From positions 1-49,284 of IMG/VR virus record IMGVR_UViG_3300035701_000054: a DNA stretch of 49,284 nucleotides; one strand, written 5' to 3'. Source of the DNA: a virus. The position numbers were made by a program, and so were the translations under genes. Position 1 is the stretch's first letter. Every line of letters starts with the position of its first letter. Positions 2,190 through 46,882 of this stretch are shown here, one piece after another. The notes beneath the pieces were generated by a model, which saw only the letters and a list, made by a program, of their open reading frames with translations, was not told the origin of the DNA and made no database searches.

Positions 2190-2762
2190 ATGGCTAATTC
2201 AAAAAAGAAAGGGAATAGAGGCGAGCTAGAGCTCGTCCATTTGTTATGTGAAAAATTCGGAGAGGGACGATTTAAAAGGACTCCCAGCTCTGGCGCTCAT
2301 ACTGGCGGCAAAAATCAAGAAGCTGCTAAAAATCTACCCTGGGAGGCTAAGATTACTTTAGTAAGCGATCTAATTACTCCTTCAGATTTTAACTTTGTGA
2401 TTGAACACAAATTTTATGCAGATGCTAATTTTTGGGATTTATTTTCTGAAAAATCAAATTGGAACCAATGGATAAATCAAGTCGAATCTGATGCTAACTT
2501 CGTTGATAAAACGCCACTTTTGGTTATCAAATACAATAGACACCAGAGGATAGCTTTAATAGATTATATATATTTAACAAGTTATGCGGTTTCCATGTAT
2601 AGTGGAGACGAAGTTACAGAAGCAGAAGTAGATGAAGATCTTGTTGAAAAGATCAAAAACATGGCTCAAAGATTTATATGGAAAGGTTATTCTATTGTTG
2701 AATTTGACGATCTATTAAATCTACCTAAAGATTTCTGGTTTGATAGGAGTAACAATGCCTAG
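2190..2762 (+). CDS. PD-(D/E)XK nuclease, Holliday-junction-resolvase-like
   Basis: The 190-residue protein begins KKKGNRGELELVHLLCEKFG and continues with RTPSSGAHTGG and VIEHKFY. A Glu after GNRG, an acidic residue and the EHK triad are the layout of small archaeal-type resolvases and related phage restriction-fold nucleases. Its place beside terminase and portal suggests that it resolves branched DNA before packaging, the job of endonuclease VII in T4; that role is inferred. The start has an upstream AAAGGGG. Its last codons overlap the portal start by 8 nt. Confidence 0.65.
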   Translation: MANSKKKGNRGELELVHLLCEKFGEGRFKRTPSSGAHTGGKNQEAAKNLPWEAKITLVSDLITPSDFNFVIEHKFYADANFWDLFSEKSNWNQWINQVESDANFVDKTPLLVIKYNRHQRIALIDYIYLTSYAVSMYSGDEVTEAEVDEDLVEKIKNMAQRFIWKGYSIVEFDDLLNLPKDFWFDRSNNA

Positions 2763-5700
2763 TCGCACAAAAGAAATAGAAAAACGTTCTGAAACTATAC
2801 AACAGTATTTTAACAAAATTAATATTACTAGAATCAGAGATCTTACGACTCCCGTCGATAAAAGACCAGATGATTCATCTTTTGCATTTAGTGCTTACAG
2901 AACTTCCATTGAAAACTTAACGGTTATAGATCAAGGTAGGTTACAGAGATATAGAGAATATGAGCAAATGTGTTATGTACCCGAATTGAATGGTGGTTTA
3001 GAGCTCTACGCTGATGACGCTTCATTATATAATGAAGATGACGAAGTAGTAGAGACAGAATCAGAAAATCAAGAGATATCTGATAATTTATACGACATGT
3101 GGTTTAAATCATTAGATATGAACTCTATTCTATGGCACATCGTTTTCAATACTTGTAAGTACGGTGATGCTTTTTATGAAGTAATTCCCGACAATTATAC
3201 TAACCCTAAAAAGATTAAGTATATTCGTTTTATACCGCCACAATTTGTGGTTAGAAGAGAAAAAGACGGAAACTTGTTAGAGTTTGTAGTAAAGATTACT
3301 CCTGACTCTAGAACACCGACTTCTGCTACTTATTATAGTTCAGCGGAAGCTTCTGAATTTATACTCAAACCTTGGCAGATGGTACATTTTAAATTAGACG
3401 ATAAAGAATTTGATCCCTATGGTAAATCAATTCTGGAACCTGGAAGATTAACATTTAAGCAAATGAAGTTGATTGAAGATGCTATGTTAATTTACAGAAT
3501 TAGTAGAGCACCAGAAAGAAGAGTTTTTGGTATTCCAGTTGGTAATTTACCATATAGAGAAGCAATGAAAAGAGTCGAAGATATTAAAACTAGATATAGA
3601 AAAACTCCATGGATTGACCCAACATGTTTATCATTAGAAACAGAGATACCACTACTTAACGACGAAACAAAAACTCTGGAGCAATTAATAAAAGATTTCG
3701 ACTCTGATAAAGAAAATTGGGTTTATTCTGTTGATAGAGAAAATGAAAATCAAATTGTTCCTGGTAAAATTATTTGGGCTGGCGTCACAAGAAAAAATAC
3801 TCAAGTAATAAAAATAACACTTGATGATGGTCAGTCATTTAAGTTTACTCCAGATCATAAATTTATTTTAAGAAATGGGGAATATTGCGAAGCAAAGAAT
3901 CTTAAAGTCGGAGATTCTTTAATGCCGCTTTATACTAAAGAAACTAAAAGAGGCTATAGAACAGTTTATAATCCTAAGAATGAAAAATATTATCCCAGAT
4001 ACATGATGTCAGCAAGATTTACAAATAACGAATGGGATTCAAATTGGATAAAAAGAACTACGCACCATATTGATTTTAACAAGAAGAATGATTATCCAGA
4101 TAATCTTAGTCTTAATATTAGCTATAACGAGTGGAAGGAAAGTCTTACCAAATATGAATACGACAAAATAATTGAAGGTATTACTTTCACACAAATTGAA
4201 AACTTAATGGGAAATCAAATTTTAGCGAGATGCAAAGTTGCACAACAATTAAATTGTAATCCTGGAGTAGTTCTTGATAGAGTAAAAAAACATGGTTATT
4301 CTTCTTGGAAAGACTATTGCTTAACAAAAAATCATAAAGTTGCTTTAATTGAATTTTTAGAAGAAAAGATTGACACTGGAACTTTAACAATTGATAAATA
4401 CCATAACTTCGCAGTAGGAAAACAAAGTAGTGGTATTCTTGTTAAGAATTCTGGTGAGATAAACTATAACGCTAATCCATTGTGCTTAACACTTGATACT
4501 AAAATAGATTTACTAGATGGTAGGTCTGAGCCACTATCTACTTTAATAGAAGAATATAAAGCTGGTAAAGAAAATTGGGTTTATTCTATTGATACTACTA
4601 GAGATAATAAAGTAGTACCTGGTAAAATAGAATGGGCTGGAATAACTCGAAAGAATGCAAAATTAGTAGAAGTATTTGTAGACAATGGAAAATCCATTAA
4701 ATGTACTCCCGACCATAAATTTATGCTTAGAGACGGTAACTATAAAGAAGCAAAAGATTTATTAGTCGGTGAAAGCCTTATGCCTAAATATACTAAAACA
4801 TCTAAAAAAGGATATGAATTAATATTCAATCCAAGTACTAGAAAATATGTACCAACTTATATGATGGTGGTTAGAGAGACTCAATCAGGTCTTTGGAATA
4901 AAAAGTATTCTAAAAAACATATCCATCATAACGATTTAAGAAAGATCAACAATTCACCAAATAATTTGAAAATATTAGAATCAGTTGAACATTTAAGATT
5001 ACATGCTATACACAACAAAGAAAACTGGCAAAGTAATGAATATAGATCAAAACAAATAGCTTCTAGAAAAAAAGCTTGGATAAATGCTTCAGATGGTAGA
5101 AGACAGCTTCAATCAGAAATTATGACCGAGTATAATAAAAGCGGGACTCATAAGAAAAGTGTAATAGCTAGAAACAATAAATTCTGGGCTGATGTAGAAA
5201 ACAGAAAAAAAACTTCTTCTAAAATGCGAAAACCAAAATCTACAACGGAAAAAATGCATATAAAATTTGATGATAAATTTTGGGCTTATGTAGATTCGGC
5301 TATTAAGGTATACAATTTACAAGATAAGATGGTCGAATCTTTAAACTCAAATCAAGAATTTATAAATCATTTTACTTCTATTACGCCAAGGTCGAATAAG
5401 AAAATCCATCGACATCTTTTAACTAAAGCTTATAGATCAAAGGGATTTGATACTTTCGCAGAGTATTCTTCTTTTGTAAAAAATAGCGAGAACCATAAAG
5501 TTGTATCAGTTGTGTATTTAGACTATAAAGAAGACACTGGCTGTATAACAGTAACCGAATGGCACAACTTTATGACAAATGGAATAACCGTGAGAAATTC
5601 GATAAATGATGATTTTTTCTTACCTCGTCGACCAGATGGATCTGGTATTACAATTGAATATTTACCAGGTGGTCAACAATTAGGTGAAATAGATGACGTT

Positions 5701-6591
5701 AGATATTTTAAAGAAAAAATTCTTCGAACGATGAGAATTCCTATGGCTTATTTGACGGGAGAACTGACAGGTGATGTGGCCAGAACTTCTTTGTCTGCTA
5801 TGGACGTAAGATTTGCCAAAACAATAGAAAGAATACAAAAACAGATTATAAAAGGACTAGAAAAGTTATCAATTATCGAGTTAGCTTTTAAAAGATTCTC
5901 AATTCAAGATATGCATGATTTTAGAATCTTATTAACTCCTCCATCTAAAATTTACGAAATACAAGAACTAGAAACATTGGCAAACAAATTTAATGTAATC
6001 CAGACAGCTCTACAAATGGCTGATGATAAGGGAAACTTATATTTGCCCAGAGAATGGTTATACAAAAAGATTAGTAAATTCAACGATCAAGAAATTTCTA
6101 ACATTAAACTAATGCAACAAAGGGAACAGGCTGAGAAAGCTGAAGTTGAAGGTACAGAAGCTGAAGCTGGCGGATTGGGTGCAGGTGCAGGTGCAGGTGG
6201 ATTAGGAGCTCCGGGCGCTGAAGCTGGTATCGCTGGGCCTGAGGCCGGTATGGCTGCTGGTCCCGAAGTAGCTGGTCCCGAAGCTGTGGCTGCTACTCCT
6301 CCAGAAGAAGCACCTGCAGCAACTGGTGGTGGGGCTGCTTTAACTGCTGCTCAAATTATAAAAGTAGCTGGCCAAGAGTTCTTGGTTGAAAACGAAGAAG
6401 ACATAAAAGACCTTATAAAATTCGTGAAGCAATACAGAGAAAATGAAAAGATAACTAAAGATAAACCTATCCTGAAGACTGGGAGAAAAATGTACGAAAA
6501 CAACTTCGAAAATTTATTCCTACATGGTGAGCTCAAAGGGCTTATCAGACGACGAAATAACAATAACAAAAGGGAAATGTTAAAAGATTAG
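2755..6591 (+). CDS. gp20: Portal protein (gp20-like) precursor containing two inteins
   Basis: The 1278-residue precursor should mature by protein splicing to a 631-residue portal, the dodecameric ring at the head vertex through which DNA enters and leaves. Exteins are residues 1-290, 566-576 and 949-1278. Joined, they give WIDPT-SGEINYNANPL-SINDDFFLPRR, followed by EYLPGGQQLGEIDDVRYF, the conserved gp20 core. The C-terminal extein carries an Ala/Gly/Pro/Glu-rich low-complexity stretch (nt about 6130-6350) and a basic tail. I place the start at ATG 2755 because AGGAG lies at 2745-2749; an upstream in-frame TTG at 2740 is less likely. No stop codon or frameshift occurs in the whole reading frame, so both inteins must splice for a working portal. 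Confidence 0.93.
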   Translation: MPSRTKEIEKRSETIQQYFNKINITRIRDLTTPVDKRPDDSSFAFSAYRTSIENLTVIDQGRLQRYREYEQMCYVPELNGGLELYADDASLYNEDDEVVETESENQEISDNLYDMWFKSLDMNSILWHIVFNTCKYGDAFYEVIPDNYTNPKKIKYIRFIPPQFVVRREKDGNLLEFVVKITPDSRTPTSATYYSSAEASEFILKPWQMVHFKLDDKEFDPYGKSILEPGRLTFKQMKLIEDAMLIYRISRAPERRVFGIPVGNLPYREAMKRVEDIKTRYRKTPWIDPTCLSLETEIPLLNDETKTLEQLIKDFDSDKENWVYSVDRENENQIVPGKIIWAGVTRKNTQVIKITLDDGQSFKFTPDHKFILRNGEYCEAKNLKVGDSLMPLYTKETKRGYRTVYNPKNEKYYPRYMMSARFTNNEWDSNWIKRTTHHIDFNKKNDYPDNLSLNISYNEWKESLTKYEYDKIIEGITFTQIENLMGNQILARCKVAQQLNCNPGVVLDRVKKHGYSSWKDYCLTKNHKVALIEFLEEKIDTGTLTIDKYHNFAVGKQSSGILVKNSGEINYNANPLCLTLDTKIDLLDGRSEPLSTLIEEYKAGKENWVYSIDTTRDNKVVPGKIEWAGITRKNAKLVEVFVDNGKSIKCTPDHKFMLRDGNYKEAKDLLVGESLMPKYTKTSKKGYELIFNPSTRKYVPTYMMVVRETQSGLWNKKYSKKHIHHNDLRKINNSPNNLKILESVEHLRLHAIHNKENWQSNEYRSKQIASRKKAWINASDGRRQLQSEIMTEYNKSGTHKKSVIARNNKFWADVENRKKTSSKMRKPKSTTEKMHIKFDDKFWAYVDSAIKVYNLQDKMVESLNSNQEFINHFTSITPRSNKKIHRHLLTKAYRSKGFDTFAEYSSFVKNSENHKVVSVVYLDYKEDTGCITVTEWHNFMTNGITVRNSINDDFFLPRRPDGSGITIEYLPGGQQLGEIDDVRYFKEKILRTMRIPMAYLTGELTGDVARTSLSAMDVRFAKTIERIQKQIIKGLEKLSIIELAFKRFSIQDMHDFRILLTPPSKIYEIQELETLANKFNVIQTALQMADDKGNLYLPREWLYKKISKFNDQEISNIKLMQQREQAEKAEVEGTEAEAGGLGAGAGAGGLGAPGAEAGIAGPEAGMAAGPEVAGPEAVAATPPEEAPAATGGGAALTAAQIIKVAGQEFLVENEEDIKDLIKFVKQYRENEKITKDKPILKTGRKMYENNFENLFLHGELKGLIRRRNNNNKREMLKD
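3625..4449 (+). other. Intein 1 of the portal (275 aa), degenerate endonuclease region
   Basis: The element starts with Cys (CLSLETEI) and ends VKN before a Ser +1 residue. Block B TPDHKF and block F YHNF are present, giving a complete HINT splicing fold. The usual penultimate His is Lys here. The middle contains HHIDFNKKNDYPDNLSL (His pair at nt 4063-4068), an HNH-like start that lacks the expected final His, so nuclease activity is probably lost. Its N-terminal 125 residues are clearly related to those of intein 2. Confidence 0.92.
4483..5598 (+). other. Intein 2 of the portal (372 aa) with HNH homing endonuclease
   Basis: The element starts with Cys (CLTLDTKI) and ends VRN before a Ser +1 residue. 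It has block B TPDHKF and block F WHNF. The insert carries HIHHNDLRKINNSPNNLKI followed by EHLRLH (His pair at nt 4924-4929), a full HNH endonuclease motif, then basic helical sequence that probably binds DNA. As in intein 1, the penultimate His is replaced, here by Arg. It sits 33 nt after intein 1. Confidence 0.92.
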
Positions 6592-35368: not shown

Positions 35369-36445
35369 ATGGCAAGAAAAAGAATGATTTTAGGAGCCGG
35401 TCAGTGTGGTATGAAATTGGCCTATGAATATTATATTAAATTTTCTAACTCGAATGAGTTAGTAGCGCTAAGTACAAGTACAGAAGATTCAGTGAACATT
35501 CCAAAATCAAGTCTAATACAAATTGCAACTGAGGGAAGCGGTAAAAAATTTACCAATGGAACTGCTATTTGGCAATCTGCGCGAGAACGACTTCAAAGAG
35601 AATTTGAAGATGTTCAGCAAACAGATATCATTTATTTCGTTTCAGCAGGAGGCGGCAGTGGAAGTAGCTCAGTCCGACATGTTGCTGATATAGTTCTTAG
35701 CGATAACAAATTTAATAGGATATTTCTTGTCATGACTCTTCCGTTTGAATACGAAAAGCTTCCATTTAAGCCTAATGCTTTAAGAGCTATCAGTACTTTA
35801 CAAGAAGATGGATATCTTGAGAAGATGAGCATTCTTCTTTTTGACAACGAAAAATTGTCTAAGCAATATTTCAATATAGAAAGGATCGACCGAGAAACAA
35901 CTATAAATACAACTGATCTCAATAAAATTAATAATCATATTGTAAATTCAACTAGTTTAGTACTCGATATGATCAACACTTATCATGATCCTCGCAAGTT
36001 TTCACCTTTTACGATTGATGAAATTGAGCATGAATCTGTTATATTTTCTTATGGATTTATTGGAGTAGACTCTAGAATTTATGACGGAGCTGGGGCTGAG
36101 GTCAAATTTGATTATGGTAAAATATCAGATGCAAAAAACGTTATCATCGCTAAAGCCGTTAACTTAAGAGAGTCAGATAATGCAATCAAATCTACTTCGG
36201 GAATTTTCTTAGAGAAGGTCAAGATCATATCTAAAAAAGCTAAAAATGCTAGAATCATGTATGGTATTATTCGAACGGATCGCATTCAGAATGGAACTTT
36301 TATTATAATTGCCAACAATCTCGATGTTGGAAAATATGTTAATAAAATAAAGAACAAAGTAGGAAGCAACGTAGACGCTTTCTTGACAAAAGATAGCAGA
36401 GAAAAAGTTTTAACTAATAGAGAAAAGAGTTTATTCGACATATGA
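35369..36445 (+). CDS. Tubulin/FtsZ-like GTPase (phage cytoskeletal protein)
   Basis: The 358-residue protein has the tubulin/FtsZ nucleotide fold: an N-terminal beta-strand with GAGQCG (9-14), LSTST near 34-38, a T3-like region TEGSGKKFTNG, and the signature SAGGGSGSSS (92-101), equivalent to GGGTGSG of tubulin and FtsZ. A T7-loop-like INTTDLNKI (179-187) follows; its second catalytic acidic residue is not obvious. Phage tubulins (PhuZ, TubZ-type) form filaments that position phage DNA or nuclei. The close relatives are unknown to me. GGGG lies upstream of ATG 35369. Confidence 0.8.
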   Translation: MARKRMILGAGQCGMKLAYEYYIKFSNSNELVALSTSTEDSVNIPKSSLIQIATEGSGKKFTNGTAIWQSARERLQREFEDVQQTDIIYFVSAGGGSGSSSVRHVADIVLSDNKFNRIFLVMTLPFEYEKLPFKPNALRAISTLQEDGYLEKMSILLFDNEKLSKQYFNIERIDRETTINTTDLNKINNHIVNSTSLVLDMINTYHDPRKFSPFTIDEIEHESVIFSYGFIGVDSRIYDGAGAEVKFDYGKISDAKNVIIAKAVNLRESDNAIKSTSGIFLEKVKIISKKAKNARIMYGIIRTDRIQNGTFIIIANNLDVGKYVNKIKNKVGSNVDAFLTKDSREKVLTNREKSLFDI

Positions 36446-38044: not shown

Positions 38045-38716
38045 ATGGAAAAAGAAAAAACATTAGATCTCGGAAAACTTGAATATCTTATTTTAAATTA
38101 TTCGATAAAAGACAGATCTTTTTGGCTTAAAATATTTGAGCCAATTGAACCTAAATTTTTTGAAAATATAGAAAATCAAAATATATTCAGGTTCTTCAAA
38201 AAATATTTCGCAAAGTATAATCAAATCCCCGATGTTCAAATTACAATAAATGAATTAAGAAATGTAGATACTGAGATCATATCTCAAATTTATGGAGATT
38301 CACCAAAAGAAACTAAAGATTATATTTACGATAAAACCCTGAAGTTTATTAAGTCTAGTTTAATCAGAAATGCACTGATTGAATCAATTGATCTTTTGGA
38401 AAAGAATGAGTTTGAAGAGATTGAAGTTAAAATAAAAAATGCCGTAAAGTTCAATCTAGACGTTTCATTAGGTTTAAAATTAGCAGATGTTGATGAGAGA
38501 TATGAGAAAATTAAAAATTTAGAGACAGAAAGAATACCTACAGGATTTCCACAATTTGACGTAATACTTAATGGAGGATGGGGACGCAAAGAACTTTATG
38601 CCTGTGCGGCACCTCCAGGAATAGGAAAATGTCATACTTATGAATCAGAAATTGAAATAGAAATCGAAGAAGAAGATAAAATTTATGATAAGATAAAGAT
38701 ATATCTCAAATCCTGA
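38045..38716 (+). CDS. gp41: DnaB-type helicase (gp41), N-terminal half fused to intein N-fragment
   Basis: Residues 1-195 are the N-terminal part of the replicative helicase, ending at the Walker A sequence APPGIGK. Residue 196 is the Cys that opens an intein N-fragment of 28 residues beginning CHTYESEIEIEIEEEDKIYD, then stop (TGA 38714-38716). The Ser needed to complete GKS is the +1 residue of the C-terminal half at nt 40087. The product must join the second half by trans-splicing to make a working ATPase. Spliced length would be 420 residues. Confidence 0.9.
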   Translation: MEKEKTLDLGKLEYLILNYSIKDRSFWLKIFEPIEPKFFENIENQNIFRFFKKYFAKYNQIPDVQITINELRNVDTEIISQIYGDSPKETKDYIYDKTLKFIKSSLIRNALIESIDLLEKNEFEEIEVKIKNAVKFNLDVSLGLKLADVDERYEKIKNLETERIPTGFPQFDVILNGGWGRKELYACAAPPGIGKCHTYESEIEIEIEEEDKIYDKIKIYLKS

Positions 38717-38741
38717 CAGCGCAGCGCAAGTTAATATAACT

Positions 38742-39716
38742 ATGGCATATAAAGAAAGAGAATCTATCTGTAAAATTTGCGGTAACAAATTCAAGAGCAG
38801 ACAACTAAATCCAGCCACTTGTTCTAAATCTTGCAAAATGAAATTCATAAGCAAACAATTAAAATCTGAGAAGAAAACTATTGGGGAATGCGAACAGTGT
38901 CATAAAGAGTTTGAATATGTCCCAACTTCTCGCCACTCAATTTATAGATTCTGTTCACAAGATTGTCGTTACACCCATAGAGCTCAATATATAAAAGAGC
39001 ACGGTAATTCAGAAGAAGCTAAAAAGAAAATATCTGAGAGCTTATCTGGTAGATCGTTAGTTGATCGAGGTTTTAGCAAAGAAGCGATTGAATCCTCCGT
39101 AGCTGCTTTAAAAATTGCTGGTAAAGAATGGAATGACTCAATAAGAAATAAAACTTATGAAGAAATTCATGGCGAAGAAAAAGCAAGAGAGATAAAGCGA
39201 AAATTCTCAGAAGATAGAATTGGAGATAAAAACTCATTTTATGATCACCATCACTCAATAGAAACTAAAGAAAAAATAGTAAAAAACAGAAACGGAAAAC
39301 TTTACATTTTTGCTAATGGTATATTTGATGATGTAAAATGGCAAGGAAGTTATGAACTTCAGTTATTAACTTATTGCTATGATAACGGTATTCGAATCAA
39401 GCGGTTTGACAAGAAGCCAATAGAATATGTTTATCAAAACAAAACCAGACACTACTTTCCAGATTTTATTATTTTAGAAAATAAGAAAGAGATCATAGTA
39501 GAGTGTAAAGGATATAGCAACGAACAAAACTTAGTAAAAATAAAAAGTGCTTCAAAAAAATATAAAAAGAAATTTAAAGTATATAAAAGAAAAGATTTTC
39601 CTTTAAATCAAGTACCGGACAAAGACATAAATGCATGGTACAAAGTTATGCAACAAAAATATGGTGACATACTTGTAATCAAATATAATCCTCACGAGGC
39701 AAAAATTGAGAATTAG
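38742..39716 (+). CDS. Homing endonuclease within the split helicase locus
   Basis: The 324-residue protein has two Cys clusters (C10-C13/C27-C31 and C50-C53/C71-C75) that look like zinc fingers, then a Ser/Lys/Arg linker with SEEAKKKISESLSGRS, a NUMOD3-like element. The C-terminal nuclease domain has GSYELQLL (Glu 205), HYFPDF (Asp 241) and VECKGY (Glu 254, Lys 256), a PD-(D/E)XK/Vsr-like layout. Such nucleases sit between split-intein halves in environmental phage genes. It overlaps the downstream half by 11 nt. Confidence 0.8.
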   Translation: MAYKERESICKICGNKFKSRQLNPATCSKSCKMKFISKQLKSEKKTIGECEQCHKEFEYVPTSRHSIYRFCSQDCRYTHRAQYIKEHGNSEEAKKKISESLSGRSLVDRGFSKEAIESSVAALKIAGKEWNDSIRNKTYEEIHGEEKAREIKRKFSEDRIGDKNSFYDHHHSIETKEKIVKNRNGKLYIFANGIFDDVKWQGSYELQLLTYCYDNGIRIKRFDKKPIEYVYQNKTRHYFPDFIILENKKEIIVECKGYSNEQNLVKIKSASKKYKKKFKVYKRKDFPLNQVPDKDINAWYKVMQQKYGDILVIKYNPHEAKIEN

Positions 39717-40764
39717 AGCTAAAATTAAAATTGGTGACTTAGTAGAAGCATTGGGCTGTAATAGTCCCGAACAAGAAATCAACATTTCTAATTCTACATT
39801 AAGAGTTAACACCCCTAAAGGATATCAAAAAATATTAGGGGTCAGAAAAACTAAAGAGTTACCTATAGTTAGATTAGAAACAGAAAGAAATATTTTAAGG
39901 TGTGCTACTGAACATAGAGTAGAAACATCTCTTGGATTTCAATTTGTAACAGAAGCAAAAGACGTTTTTACTAAAAATGGATTTCAAGTGTGCAAAATAA
40001 TAACAGAAAATATAAAAGAAAATTGTTATGATGTTCAAATTGAAAACACGCACTCATACTGGGCTAATGAGATCCATAGTCACAACTCGATCTTTTTAGC
40101 GAACTGGGCCGTGGCAACTATTAAACAAGGATTTAATGCGTTAGTCTATACTCTAGAAATTTCTGAAGAACGCTTGAGCATGAGACATGACGCGATACTC
40201 ACAAAGATCCACGTTGATGAGCTAATTTATGATATAGATAAAATCAAAGAAAAATATAAGAACTTCGCTAAAATAAGCAAAGCCAATCTTTGGGTCAAAG
40301 AGTTTCCAACTAAGTTAGCTTCGATCAACACTCTCAGAAGCCACTTTGAACAACTTTACACTTATGAAGATTTTCGACCTGATGTTATTTTCGTTGACTA
40401 TGCAGCCTTATTAAAACCCTCGTTTCGGGTAGATTCATATGAAGATTTAAAAGCAATCTACGAAGAACTTCGAGGATGGGCAGTTGAGCTAGATATTCCG
40501 ATTGTGACAGCTGCTCAAACAAATAGAACATCTCTCGATCCGAAGGGTGGCACTAAAGAAATTATTACCCAAGCTCAAGTTGCTGATTCACTTGGCATTG
40601 CGCAAACAGTCGATCTTTTTATGACGATAACTCAATCAAGAACTGAAAAAGAACAAGGTACTATCAACCTCTATATAGACAAGCACAGACACGGTGAATC
40701 TTCAAAAACTATTAAATACTATATAGACTACAAGAACTTTATATTAGATGAAATAGCGATTTAA
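39706..40764 (+). CDS. gp41: Intein C-fragment fused to DnaB-type helicase (gp41) C-terminal half
   Basis: The first 127 residues are the intein C-part: KIKIGDLVEAL, CATEHRVETS (block B), YDVQIENTHSYWANEIHSHN (blocks F and G, penultimate His present). The Ser +1 (nt 40087) then begins SIFLANWAVATIKQGFNALV, the helicase core, with VIFVDYAALLK (Walker B), TAAQTNRTS and YIDKHRHGESS (arginine-finger region). The start is TTG 39706, with GAGG 6 nt upstream inside the endonuclease gene. Confidence 0.9.
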   Translation: MRIRAKIKIGDLVEALGCNSPEQEINISNSTLRVNTPKGYQKILGVRKTKELPIVRLETERNILRCATEHRVETSLGFQFVTEAKDVFTKNGFQVCKIITENIKENCYDVQIENTHSYWANEIHSHNSIFLANWAVATIKQGFNALVYTLEISEERLSMRHDAILTKIHVDELIYDIDKIKEKYKNFAKISKANLWVKEFPTKLASINTLRSHFEQLYTYEDFRPDVIFVDYAALLKPSFRVDSYEDLKAIYEELRGWAVELDIPIVTAAQTNRTSLDPKGGTKEIITQAQVADSLGIAQTVDLFMTITQSRTEKEQGTINLYIDKHRHGESSKTIKYYIDYKNFILDEIAI

Positions 40765-41481: not shown

Positions 41482-41711
41482 TGTCTTACAATAAAAGTAT
41501 GACAATTACAGCTCGCTATCGACAAGAGGCATTTTCAGTAGAGCATAATAAACGACACTATACAGCTCTTCGGTTTGAAAATTTACAAGACGGTGGCATA
41601 TCCTACAGCATAAAAGACGACGGAAAAATTTTTGCAAATGTAAATCCAAATACTACTACTTTCAAAATCATCGCAAACGCTATAGAATATAGGAAGAGCC
41701 CAAAGTCATGA
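41481..41711 (+). CDS. Small unknown protein upstream of PARP
   Basis: The 76-residue basic beta-rich protein overlaps both neighbours by 1-4 nt, so it is translationally linked to the PARP gene. No motif is recognised. Confidence 0.6.
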   Translation: MSYNKSMTITARYRQEAFSVEHNKRHYTALRFENLQDGGISYSIKDDGKIFANVNPNTTTFKIIANAIEYRKSPKS

Positions 41712-42922
41712 ACTACGGTTCTAAAAAGTTGATAATGGTTACCGGTGATAACAACAACAAGTTCTATAACATGAAAGACAACAACGACGGGACTTTCACA
41801 AGCGAGTGGGGTCGCATTGGTGCAACAAAAGACTCGACTACGTATCCCATAAAGAAGTGGAACTCTATTTACCGCAACAAAACTGGCAAAGGTTACAAAG
41901 ACATCACAGAGATTTTCGCCGAGAAGATCGACGACAATGTGAACTTCGCTGATATTAAGGACAGTCAGATCTCTCGGTTAGTTTCTGCTTTACAATCTTA
42001 CGCGAAGAAATCAGTCACAGAGAATTATACAGTCACTTCTGAGTCAGTCACTCAAAAGCAAGTCGATGAAGCTCAGATTATTCTCGATAAGTTGACTGTC
42101 CTCAAGGCTATAGATGTATCGCCTCTCAACGAAACTCTCATTGAACTTTACACTATTATTCCTCGTAGAATGAGTAATGTGAAGCATCATCTTTTTGGTA
42201 ACGACATTGGTTTGGTACTCTCAAAAGAAAATCTTGAAAGAGTGATTGCTAACGAACAAGCAACTCTCGACGTCATGAGTGGTCAGGTTTCTACTAACAC
42301 TAAAACAAAAGACGTCAACGATAAAGAACACAAAACACTTCTTGATGTTATGGGCTTGGCTGTCGAAGCAATAAACGATCAAGATCATCAGACGATTCTT
42401 AAACTTCTCGGTCCCAATGCTCGGCAATTCAAATCTGCTTATAGAGTCATCAACCTGAAGACACAAGATACATACGATAAGTGGCTTGACAAAGTTACAA
42501 ACAAATCTGCTTATCTTTTCTGGCATGGTTCTCGCAATGAGAACTGGTGGTCTATTCTTGACTCTGGACTTCTAATCCGCCCTTCGAACGCAGTTTTCTC
42601 GGGAGCTATGTTTGGTCACGGAGTTTACTTTGCCGATAAAGCTCAGAAGTCAATAGGATACACTTCTCTTCGTGGAAGTTATTGGGCTGCAGGCTCTTCG
42701 AATCGAGCATATTTGGCTGTATTCAATGTTCATACGGGAAACTGGTTGAAGAGCCAACGACATGAAACTTGGATGTACGATTTAAATGAAAGTAAGTTAA
42801 AGAATCGAGGTAATTACGATTCGCTCTTTGCACTCGGTGGCTATGACCTTCGAAACAATGAATACATCGTCTACAACAAAAACCAATGCACAATTCAATA
42901 TCTCGTTGAGATAGGAGACTAA
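41708..42922 (+). CDS. Poly(ADP-ribose) polymerase with WGR, regulatory and catalytic domains
   Basis: The 404-residue protein has an N-terminal WGR domain (EWGRIGATKDSTTYPIKKW, residues 33-51), a helical PARP regulatory domain (about 80-235) and a catalytic ART domain. The H-Y-E triad is intact: WHGSRNENWW (His 273), GHGVYFADKAQKS (Tyr 307) and NEYIVYN (Glu 385). This is the full architecture of eukaryotic DNA-dependent PARPs, distinct from the T4 Alt/Mod enzymes. It uses NAD to modify proteins or DNA. The start overlaps the previous stop. Confidence 0.9.
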   Translation: MNYGSKKLIMVTGDNNNKFYNMKDNNDGTFTSEWGRIGATKDSTTYPIKKWNSIYRNKTGKGYKDITEIFAEKIDDNVNFADIKDSQISRLVSALQSYAKKSVTENYTVTSESVTQKQVDEAQIILDKLTVLKAIDVSPLNETLIELYTIIPRRMSNVKHHLFGNDIGLVLSKENLERVIANEQATLDVMSGQVSTNTKTKDVNDKEHKTLLDVMGLAVEAINDQDHQTILKLLGPNARQFKSAYRVINLKTQDTYDKWLDKVTNKSAYLFWHGSRNENWWSILDSGLLIRPSNAVFSGAMFGHGVYFADKAQKSIGYTSLRGSYWAAGSSNRAYLAVFNVHTGNWLKSQRHETWMYDLNESKLKNRGNYDSLFALGGYDLRNNEYIVYNKNQCTIQYLVEIGD

Positions 42923-43050: not shown

Positions 43051-44204
43051 ATGTCAATAATCAATAGTTTGTTGGACACTGACTTGTACTGAAGTACAAG
43101 TTAACAATGATGCAAGCTGTCTTACATCAGTTTCCAGAAACTACAGTCGAGTATACTTTCAAGTGTAGAAATAAAGCGAACTGGAATGAGAATATAGTTC
43201 GCGAAATTAAAAAAGAGATTTACAACTTTTGTACTTTACGATTTCAACATAGTGAACTTGAATATCTGAGAAGTATCCGATTTCTTAAAAATGATTTCAT
43301 TGATTTCTTAAATTTGTATCATCCGAACTACCAACACATTAAAGTTTTTTTAAATGAAGGCCAGCTCGAGATTAAAATCGAAGGGAGTTGGTTATTGACT
43401 ATTTTGTTTGAAGTTCCTGTTCTCGCAATTGTAAATGAAGTATATTTTAGAGAAGTACCTCAAAAAGAAGGTATTAATCGGTTATTTAAAAAGTTTGAAT
43501 TAGCTCGTTCTGTTAAAGACTTCAAATTTACAGACTTCGGAACTCGGCGAAGAATAAGCAAACAGTGGCAAGAAATAGTTGTTGAAAATTTTGCTAAAAC
43601 TATTCCCGAAATCTTCATAGGAACTTCAAATGTACTTCTTGCAAAAGAGTATAGAATAAAAGTTATAGGAACTATGGCTCACGAATGGATTCAAGCTGGT
43701 CAAGCTATCGGAGTGAGGCTTATCGATTCTCAGAAAAGAATGCTTCAGGCTTGGGTTGATGAATATCGGGGAGACCTTGGAATAGCTTTGACTGACACTC
43801 TCGGAGTTAATGCTTTTATCAAAGACTTCGATCTTTATTTCGCAAAGCTATACGACGGAGTACGCCACGATTCTGGAGACCCAATTGAGTGGGGTGAGAA
43901 GATGATTGCTCATTATCAATCATTGGGTATCGACTCCCGAACTAAACTTTTTATATTTAGTGATGGTCTGACATTCGCCAGGGCCATAGAAATCTTCAAG
44001 CATTTCAGAAACAGAGTAAAACTTTCTTTTGGTATTGGCACGAATCTTACCAACGACTTTGCCGACATTGAGCCTTTGCAGATTGTTCTTAAAATGACTA
44101 AATGCAATGGTCGTCCAGTCGCGAAGTTATCAGATTCGCCGAGTAAAGGAATGTGTCAAGATGAAGCATATTTATTTTATCTAAAGAATGTGTTTGGAAT
44201 ATAA
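43051..44204 (+). CDS. pncB: Nicotinate phosphoribosyltransferase, interrupted near the start (candidate translational bypass)
   Basis: The enzyme condenses nicotinate and PRPP to nicotinate mononucleotide in NAD salvage. ATG 43051, after AAGGAGG (43031-43037), reads MSIINSLLDTDLY and then meets TGA (43090-43092). The remaining 369 codons lie in another frame from AAG 43098: KLTMMQAVLHQFPETTVEY onwards. Joining TAC 43087 to AAG 43098 gives DTDLYKLTMMQA, the conserved NAPRT opening whose Tyr contacts substrate. Later motifs GTMAHEW (catalytic His) and YDGVRHDSGDP are intact. ATG 43107 has no ribosome-binding site and would lose this motif. The gene is therefore either expressed by bypassing an 8-nt gap or inactivated. 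Confidence 0.85.
43080..43103 (+). promoter_or_regulatory. Hairpin with stop codon in its loop at the pncB interruption
   Basis: CTTGTAC/GTACAAG closes on a TGAA tetraloop; A-T, G-U and T-A pairs extend the stem to about 10 pairs. The TAC take-off codon lies at the top of the 5' arm, the TGA stop in the loop and the identical TAC landing codon in the 3' arm. This mirrors the take-off hairpin of T4 gene 60. Confidence 0.8.
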
Positions 44205-45793: not shown

Positions 45794-45832
45794 GGCAACT
45801 TATATTTCATGTATTTATAATTGGGGAAGAAA

Positions 45833-46882
45833 ATGGAAAGAAAATTAGCTAGCATTCAAATTATCAAAGAAATCAATCTAATTCCCGACGCTGATGCAAT
45901 CGATCGAGCTACTATTCTTGGGTGGCAATGTGTAGTCAAGAAGGGTGAATTCAAAGTTGGCGATCTTTGTGTTTATTGCGAAGTCGACTCGCTTCTGCCA
46001 ATAAAACCTGAGTTTGAGTTCCTTCGTAAGAGCTGCTTCAATTCTCGTCTTAATGGATTTAGAATTAAAACAATGAAACTAAGAGGCCAAATATCTCAAG
46101 GCATCGCTTTTCCTCTTTCTGTTCTCCCGCCTACGCTTCAAATATTTCCTCCTGTTGAGGATTCTGATGTTAGTATAGTCCTCGAAGTTCGAAAGTATGA
46201 AGTCCCGATTCCCGTATGTCTTGGCGGTGAAGTAAGTGGCAATTTCCCATCTTTCATTCCGAAGACTGATGAAACTCGCATTCAATCTGTACTTAATGTA
46301 CTTAATCGTCATCACGGAGTTCCTTTCACAGTAACTGAAAAATTAGATGGTACTTCTTCTACTTTTTATATTAAAGAAGGAACATTTGGTGTATGTGGTA
46401 GGAATTGGGAGTTCAAGCCTGGAGTGGAAAATGTTTATTGGGAAATAGCTAAAAAATATGACCTTGAAAACAAAATGAAAGCTCTTGGTGCTGGTGACTT
46501 CGCAATTCAAGGTGAAATTGTGGGTCCCGGTATTCAGAAAAACAAATACGCTTTATCTGAACATAAGCTCTTTATTTATCATGCTTTCGACATTTTAAGC
46601 CATACATATTATTATCAAATCGGAGTTGAGAACGTTTGTTATTACCTTGGAGTTCCGATGGTACCCGTTCTTGAAAGGAATTTTTTCCTCAATGAAAAAA
46701 TGAGAAGCGTTGAAGAAGCAGTTAATTTCAGTAGTGGTCTCTCTGTTATCAATAAAAATATTCAGAGAGAAGGTATTGTAGTTAAGTCAGCGCTTGAAAT
46801 GACTGATCCCGAATTAGGGCGACTTTCTTTTAAGGTTGTCAATCCAAACTTTCTTCTTAAATATGAAAAGGACGAAGAATGA
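45833..46882 (+). CDS. RNA ligase, DRB0094 (Rnl5-like) family
   Basis: The 349-residue protein has an N-terminal OB-type domain (ERKLASIQIIKEI; GEFKVGDLCVYCEVDSLLP) and a nucleotidyltransferase core: TEKLDGTSS with catalytic Lys 170, VCGRNWE, QGEIVGPGIQKNKY, REGIVVKS (motif IV) and FKVVNPNFLLKY (motif V). This matches the Deinococcus DraRnl-type ligase, which seals 3'-OH/5'-P nicks in RNA strands. Phage RNA ligases commonly counter tRNA-cleaving host defences. ATG 45833 is preferred because GGGGAAG precedes it. Confidence 0.87.
   Translation: MERKLASIQIIKEINLIPDADAIDRATILGWQCVVKKGEFKVGDLCVYCEVDSLLPIKPEFEFLRKSCFNSRLNGFRIKTMKLRGQISQGIAFPLSVLPPTLQIFPPVEDSDVSIVLEVRKYEVPIPVCLGGEVSGNFPSFIPKTDETRIQSVLNVLNRHHGVPFTVTEKLDGTSSTFYIKEGTFGVCGRNWEFKPGVENVYWEIAKKYDLENKMKALGAGDFAIQGEIVGPGIQKNKYALSEHKLFIYHAFDILSHTYYYQIGVENVCYYLGVPMVPVLERNFFLNEKMRSVEEAVNFSSGLSVINKNIQREGIVVKSALEMTDPELGRLSFKVVNPNFLLKYEKDEE

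What the first reader, a model, noticed from the sequence alone, without database searches (positions are those of the whole stretch)
38045..40764. gp41 helicase split inside Walker A by an atypically split intein
The helicase stops after APPGIGK plus a 28-residue intein N-part starting with Cys; the other half starts with a 127-residue intein C-part ending HSHN and continues at Ser with the helicase core. The Walker A GKS exists only after trans-splicing. An N-part this short is rare; most split inteins break near the endonuclease site, giving about 100 + 35 residues. The known short-N examples (for example AceL-TerL) also come from phage terminase or helicase genes.
Basis: partly seen in the sequence, partly recalled or inferred. 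Interest (0 to 1): 0.9.

Follow-up and report, generated by a model that had tools for sequence, protein, structure and literature searches.

The report
Phage helicase in two trans-spliced pieces
In this phage the gene for the replicative DNA helicase is broken in the middle of its ATP-binding loop by a split intein and a DNA-cutting mobile gene, so a working helicase should form only after the two protein halves splice themselves together; this is a well-supported new example of a known arrangement, not a new kind of system.

Summary
ORF 38045-38716 is a gp41/DnaB-like helicase N-half (195 aa) plus a 28-aa IntN starting Cys. ORF 39706-40764 (TTG start, GAGG ribosome-binding site) is a 127-aa IntC ending HSHN plus a 225-aa helicase core starting Ser. 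The exteins meet seamlessly in the DnaB-like profile (366|367), and an intein-free relative reads APPGIGKS straight through. This is therefore a 'fractured gene', in the sense of Dassa 2009. Two other contigs (L015, L039) have the same layout with homologous endonucleases; L009 is split without one; L013 has the same intein contiguous. The closest solved structure is VidaL (profile E 1.1e-14), an atypically split intein, not AceL-TerL. The family occupies P-loops of phage helicases and gp46/SbcC-like ATPases, and split, endonuclease and contiguous states are interspersed on its tree. Trans-splicing is inferred, not shown. New member of a known kind. The family-level pattern (fixed split point, changing endonuclease classes, possible re-fusion) is the more interesting lead and is unresolved.

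The parts
38045..38629 (+). N-extein: N-terminal half of a gp41/DnaB-like replicative helicase, 195 aa, ending ...APPGIGK (first part of Walker A)
   Evidence: phrog_19 E 4.8e-28, profile 162-366
38630..38713 (+). IntN, 28 aa, CHTYESEIEIEIEEEDKIYDKIKIYLKS; Cys1 nucleophile; stop TGA at 38714-38716
   Evidence: aligned with the N-terminus of the contiguous intein of L013
38742..39716 (+). Free-standing putative homing endonuclease, 324 aa: two CxxC zinc-finger-like modules, NUMOD3-like repeat, C-terminal PD-(D/E)XK-like nuclease motif (PDFIILENKKEIIVECKG)
   Evidence: weak Pfam hits below cut-off: NUMOD3 1.8e-3, Phage_endo_I 2.1e-3, TnsA-like 0.039; NCBIfam restriction endonuclease partial 1.7e-6; phrog_1271 HNH endonuclease 1.6e-7 over the N-terminal part; homologues L015, L039 at the same place
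39696..39699 (+). Shine-Dalgarno-like GAGG, 6 nt before the TTG start of the C-half
   Evidence: sequence; L009 (AAGGA) and L015 (AGGAG) have counterparts before their IntC starts
39706..40086 (+). IntC, 127 aa, TTG start overlapping the end of the endonuclease ORF by 11 nt, ending ...HSHN (penultimate His, terminal Asn)
   Evidence: PF14890 C-terminal match 1.1e-3; profile versus VidaL 1.1e-14 and gp41-1 1.1e-11
40087..40761 (+). C-extein: helicase core, 225 aa, Ser+1 completes Walker A GKS
   Evidence: phrog_19 E 2.4e-45, profile 367-580; DnaB_C 5.5e-17

Best explanation
A class-1, atypically (N-terminally) split intein interrupts the phage's gp41/DnaB-like helicase at GK|S of Walker A. The two halves are translated from separate ribosome-binding sites, probably on one message. 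IntN and IntC associate; Cys1 attacks the upstream Lys-Cys bond, the N-half moves to Ser+1, the terminal Asn cyclises, and an O-N shift leaves a 420-aa helicase whose ATP-binding loop exists only after splicing. The gene lodged between the halves encodes a putative homing endonuclease that would cut intein-free helicase alleles, so that repair copies the whole intein-N/endonuclease/intein-C cassette. Shown here: anatomy, seamless extein junction, intein motifs and homology, empty sites, recurrence in other contigs. Inferred: trans-splicing, endonuclease activity and target, homing.
For: Seamless profile junction 366|367, repeated in L009, L015 and L017. Intact intein-free homologues with the identical flanks APPGIGK|SIFLAN. 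Cys1, penultimate His, terminal Asn and Ser+1 all present; family profile hits VidaL 1.1e-14, gp41-1 1.1e-11, CatC 4.8e-8, NrdJ-1 8.7e-6. Same fractured layout with homologous endonuclease in L015 and L039. IntC is constrained about as much as the exteins (pN/pS 0.30 against 0.26-0.40, window vs L013). The same intein occurs contiguous in a 583-aa ORF in L013, so the window's two pieces are one domain. Each split C-half has its own start codon, some with clear SD motifs. Rfam finds no intron. The window's helicase is nearest to intein-free ones while its intein is nearest to L013, as for a mobile element.
Against: No experiment. AlphaFold2 models of IntC and of the endonuclease were useless (pLDDT 32 and 38). 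The block-B Thr of TxxH is Ala here (CATEH), also in L009 and L013. The endonuclease family hits lie below curated cut-offs. The genome is a 49-kb fragment, so a second intact helicase elsewhere is not excluded. Synonymous sites are near saturation, so pN/pS is only a rough guide.
Confidence: 0.92

Rival explanations
1. Genes-in-pieces without splicing: the halves assemble non-covalently into a working helicase, as described for the endonuclease-split NrdA of Aeromonas phage Aeh1, and the intein remnants are inert.
For: A precedent exists for endonuclease-split phage enzymes that work unligated (PMC2988022).
Against: The break lies inside Walker A and both halves carry an intein part with conserved catalytic residues; IntC is constrained about as much as the exteins; the same intein is contiguous in L013. 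Inert remnants would decay.
Confidence: 0.04
2. The helicase is broken (pseudogene) or the break is a sequencing or assembly artefact; the real gene has a continuous maxi-intein with an endonuclease domain.
For: Metagenomic contig; related inteins in L013, L020, L023, L025, L034 are contiguous.
Against: Three different frames, separate starts, and the same layout in independent contigs L015, L039, and with other endonucleases in L017, L019, L021, L024, L029, L030, L035-L037. No frameshift-like decay; all ORFs are full length.
Confidence: 0.02
3. An RNA-level element (group I or II intron carrying the endonuclease) joins the halves before translation.
For: Free-standing endonucleases in phages often sit in introns.
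Against: No Rfam intron at gathering threshold, and only chance-level matches at E up to 1. The sequence bordering the endonuclease encodes an intein, and the intein-free allele joins at the protein splice points, not at the endonuclease borders.
Confidence: 0.01

Closest known systems
VidaL split intein (PDB 6VGV/6VGW)
   Same: Best solved relative by sequence: single fused sequence E 3.3e-4, family profile E 1.1e-14. Atypical split early in the intein; Cys-dependent; IntN 16 aa, split directly after strand beta2 (S1 position) per PMC13014065.
   Different: IntN here is 28 aa, with a longer C-terminal tail. From memory only: VidaL was found in a T4-type helicase gene; its host gene and insertion residue were not checked here.
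Fractured genes with split inteins and free-standing endonucleases (Dassa et al. 2009, NAR; gp41-1, gp41-8, NrdJ-1, IMPDH-1)
   Same: Host gene broken into N-half/IntN, endonuclease gene, IntC/C-half; gp41-type helicase host; gp41-1 is the second best PDB match.
   Different: Canonical members split near the endonuclease site (gp41-1: 88 + 37 aa, PMC11766414); here 28 + 127. The 2009 paper was not readable here; from memory its endonucleases are Vsr-like, whereas the window's nuclease motif is D...ExK.
AceL-TerL, GOS-TerL and CatC atypical split inteins
   Same: Short IntN (25 and 37 aa for the natural ones), long IntC, phage gene host; profile E 4.8e-8 to CatC.
   Different: Host is terminase; split at S2, after helix alpha1, whereas here the IKIGDL segment, taken to be helix alpha1, is in IntC.
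gp41 locus of Vibrio phage vB_VmeM-32 (KU160494)
   Same: Public isolate with split gp41, endonuclease ORF between, IntN 27 aa, IntC about 118 aa; IntC aligns at 1e-9.
   Different: Apparent insertion before TGKS (GVN|TGKS), three residues upstream of GIGK|S; +1 Thr; no detectable similarity of the endonucleases. The C-half is not annotated in the record.

Membership tests
Split intein (HINT, class 1) | Nucleophile Cys/Ser at position 1, penultimate His plus terminal Asn, Cys/Ser/Thr at +1 | tested here: met
   Cys1, H126-N127, Ser+1
Split intein (HINT, class 1) | Sequence homology to HINT/intein domain | tested here: met
   PF14890 4.9e-5 for fused halves, below the curated cut-off; family profile versus VidaL 1.1e-14 and gp41-1 1.1e-11
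Split intein (HINT, class 1) | Two separate genes carrying complementary parts fused to the two host halves | tested here: met
Split intein (HINT, class 1) | Canonical block-B TxxH | tested here: inconclusive
   His present, Thr position is Ala (CATEH); same in L009 and L013
Split intein (HINT, class 1) | Trans-splicing activity | not testable with these tools
   needs co-expression
Atypically split intein (short IntN) | Split near the N-terminus, IntN about 15-37 aa | tested here: met
   IntN 28, IntC 127; range from PMC13014065
Fractured gene (split intein + free-standing endonuclease between halves) | Endonuclease gene located between IntN and IntC genes | tested here: met
   ORF 38742-39716 with homologues at the same place in L015 and L039
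Fractured gene (split intein + free-standing endonuclease between halves) | The intervening protein is an active site-specific homing endonuclease | not testable with these tools
   family matches are weak; the PD...ExK motif is conserved in window, L015 and L039
VidaL-like lineage | Split immediately after strand beta2 (S1) | tested here: inconclusive
   The split lies before the IKIGDL segment, as in S1, but IntN has an extra tail of about 15 aa; no structural model obtained

The most novel reading that the evidence does not exclude
The split point of this intein family is old and fixed while the endonuclease in it is swapped between unrelated nuclease classes or lost, and contiguous members such as L013 and L023 are naturally re-fused split inteins. 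Splitting would then be reversible in nature rather than a one-way event.
Probability: 0.35. Interest if true: 0.65.

Novelty: new member of a known kind. Interest (0 to 1): 0.45.

Why it matters
It adds a clean natural, N-terminally split intein in an essential replication enzyme, with the catalytic P-loop rebuilt only by splicing, so imprecise loss of the cassette should destroy the helicase. At family level it supplies, at one insertion site, empty, split with endonuclease, split without endonuclease, and contiguous states, which makes the origin and reversibility of split inteins testable. The IntN parts of 27-29 aa are candidates for peptide-based protein labelling.

Tried and rejected
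Single-protein scans of viral contigs with IntC and with the endonuclease found nothing; alignments were needed. AlphaFold2 of the endonuclease (pLDDT 38) and of IntC (pLDDT 32) was too poor for fold searches. tblastn of the endonuclease against phages found nothing at 1e-5; its L015 relative found Prevotella Lak phages, two mycobacteriophages and two uncultured phages. Genome contigs gave no relatives of the intein. T4-type hits H2-H8, which seemed to cover the intein region, look like ordinary uninterrupted gp41 genes; the two inspected are 476-aa ORFs. Group I/II intron rejected. The free-standing endonuclease downstream of the helicase in L006/L010 is not detectably related to the window's. 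Re-fusion versus repeated splitting was tested on trees: the direction is unresolved in the window's clade, although strictly irreversible splitting fits poorly (11 splits; lnL -22.2 against -11.4). Promoter and terminator scans were at chance. Dassa 2009 and the 2015 GOS-TerL paper were not held.

Full report
WHAT IS THERE. Three consecutive + strand ORFs in three frames. Helicase N-half 38045-38716: 195 aa of helicase ending APPGIGK, then a 28-aa IntN beginning with Cys. A 324-aa ORF 38742-39716. Helicase C-half 39706-40764: TTG start preceded by GAGG at 39696-39699, a 127-aa IntC ending HSHN, then 225 aa of helicase core beginning Ser.

WHY IT IS NOT CHANCE. The two exteins match one DnaB-like profile end to end: positions 162-366 by the N-half, 367-580 by the C-half. 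An intein-free relative (L006/L010, 419 aa, 70% identical to the joined exteins) reads CAAPPGIGKSIFLANWA, and L007/L008 (422 aa) do the same. IntC plus IntN match intein models, and a profile of the family finds VidaL (1.1e-14), gp41-1 (1.1e-11), CatC (4.8e-8) and NrdJ-1 (8.7e-6) in the PDB. IntC is constrained about as much as the exteins (pN/pS 0.30 against 0.26-0.40, window vs L013), though synonymous sites are near saturation.

THE MIDDLE GENE. It has CxxC zinc-finger-like modules, a NUMOD3-like repeat and a C-terminal PD-(D/E)XK-like motif. Library hits are weak, but two other contigs carry homologues in exactly the same place: L015 (36% identical) and L039 (44%), both between an IntN of 29 aa and an IntC of 139 aa inserted at the same GK|S. 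In the window, L015 and L039 the endonuclease ORF overlaps the IntC start, as expected for coupled translation. Its identification as a homing endonuclease is an inference from position, modules and relatives.

STATES OF THE SAME INTEIN. At the same residue of the helicase: empty (L007, L008, L010); split with endonuclease (window, L015, L039); split without endonuclease, the two ORFs overlapping by 20 nt with an AAGGA before the IntC ATG (L009); contiguous in a 583-aa ORF (L013). L013 has a Met at the position of the IntC start codon of the split forms. Helicase trees put the window with the empty L007/L010, while the intein tree puts it with L013, L009, L015 and L039, as for a mobile element.

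WIDER FAMILY. An IntC-alignment scan gave 22 further loci with the same intein type in P-loops (GK|C ... HN|S/T) of DnaB-like helicases and of gp46/SbcC-like ATPases. Over 23 non-redundant loci (L039 and vB_VmeM-32 included): 14 split with an endonuclease-like ORF between, 4 split without, 5 contiguous. Eight split gp46 inteins end IntN at the same residue (xLPxELK, stop, or xIPxELK) although the ORFs inserted there belong to different nuclease classes: Vsr-like with YHANP/YHGNP motifs in most (phrog_22677), GIY-YIG in L035, and none in L038. States are not clustered on the 22-row IntC tree (9 changes, shuffled mean 8.3). If splitting were irreversible 11 independent splits would be needed, against 5 fusions from a split ancestor; a reversible two-state model fits better (lnL -11.4 against -22.2). 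This is suggestive only: endonucleases can target one site repeatedly, the trees are weakly supported, and in the window's own clade the direction is unresolved.

HOW IT WORKS (inferred). Class-1 protein trans-splicing: association of IntN and IntC, N-S acyl shift at Cys1, transfer to Ser+1, Asn cyclisation with the preceding His, O-N shift, giving a 420-aa helicase whose Walker A is created by ligation. The endonuclease would spread the cassette by cutting intein-free alleles. The non-covalent genes-in-pieces rival has a precedent (PMC2988022) but does not explain the constrained intein parts at a Walker A break.

COMPARISON. Natural short-IntN inteins are published (15-37 aa; VidaL 16, AceL-TerL 25, PolB16 OarG 15; PMC13014065, PMC10189870; GOS-TerL 37, PMC11766414). 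P-loop insertion is common for inteins (PMC5050341, PMC5874633). Fractured genes were named in 2009 (title cited in PMC13014065; the paper itself was not readable here). A public isolate, Vibrio phage vB_VmeM-32, has the same kind of locus at a site about three residues away, with its C-half unannotated. The window is therefore a new member of a known kind.

LIMITS. No splicing or cleavage was tested; structure prediction failed; the genome is a 49-kb fragment; the endonuclease assignment rests on weak domain hits plus conserved position and motif.

Noticed in passing
window 2740-6591: The portal protein ORF (1283 aa) contains a second, contiguous intein with an HNH endonuclease: intein N-terminal model 6.9e-22 at residue 582, C-terminal model ending at residue 953, HNH match at 683-776.
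   Followed up: partly
window 41708-42922: WGR plus PARP catalytic domain protein (PARP 1.4e-23), next to a nicotinate phosphoribosyltransferase-family gene at 43107-44204 (1.4e-82) and an RNA ligase at 45821-46882: a possible phage NAD/ADP-ribosylation gene group.
   Followed up: no
window 35369-36445: Tubulin/FtsZ-family GTPase-like protein (5.6e-11) with a homologue in the related contig L006 1085-2155.
   Followed up: no
L002 (KU160494 62765-69697) and L005: Vibrio phage vB_VmeM-32: gp41 split by an intein and an endonuclease, with N-half and C-half not annotated as helicase; annotations also suggest a split uvsX with an endonuclease between (HintC noted) and a split DNA polymerase.
   Followed up: partly
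L030 3343-7223 and relatives L019, L029, L033, L035-L038: gp46/SbcC-like recombination ATPase split inside its P-loop by the same intein family, IntN always 29 aa ending in ELK, with Vsr-like or GIY-YIG endonucleases or none between; no previous report was found, though the literature search was not aimed at gp46.
   Followed up: partly
L013 4890-5375 and L023 4836-5309: Contiguous inteins with a Met at the position of the IntC start codon in split relatives, possible scars of re-fusion.
   Followed up: partly
L010 7133-7846: A different free-standing endonuclease-like gene (zinc ribbon...FPDYY...IIEWDEKSH) lies about 450 nt downstream of the intein-free helicase gene.
   Followed up: no
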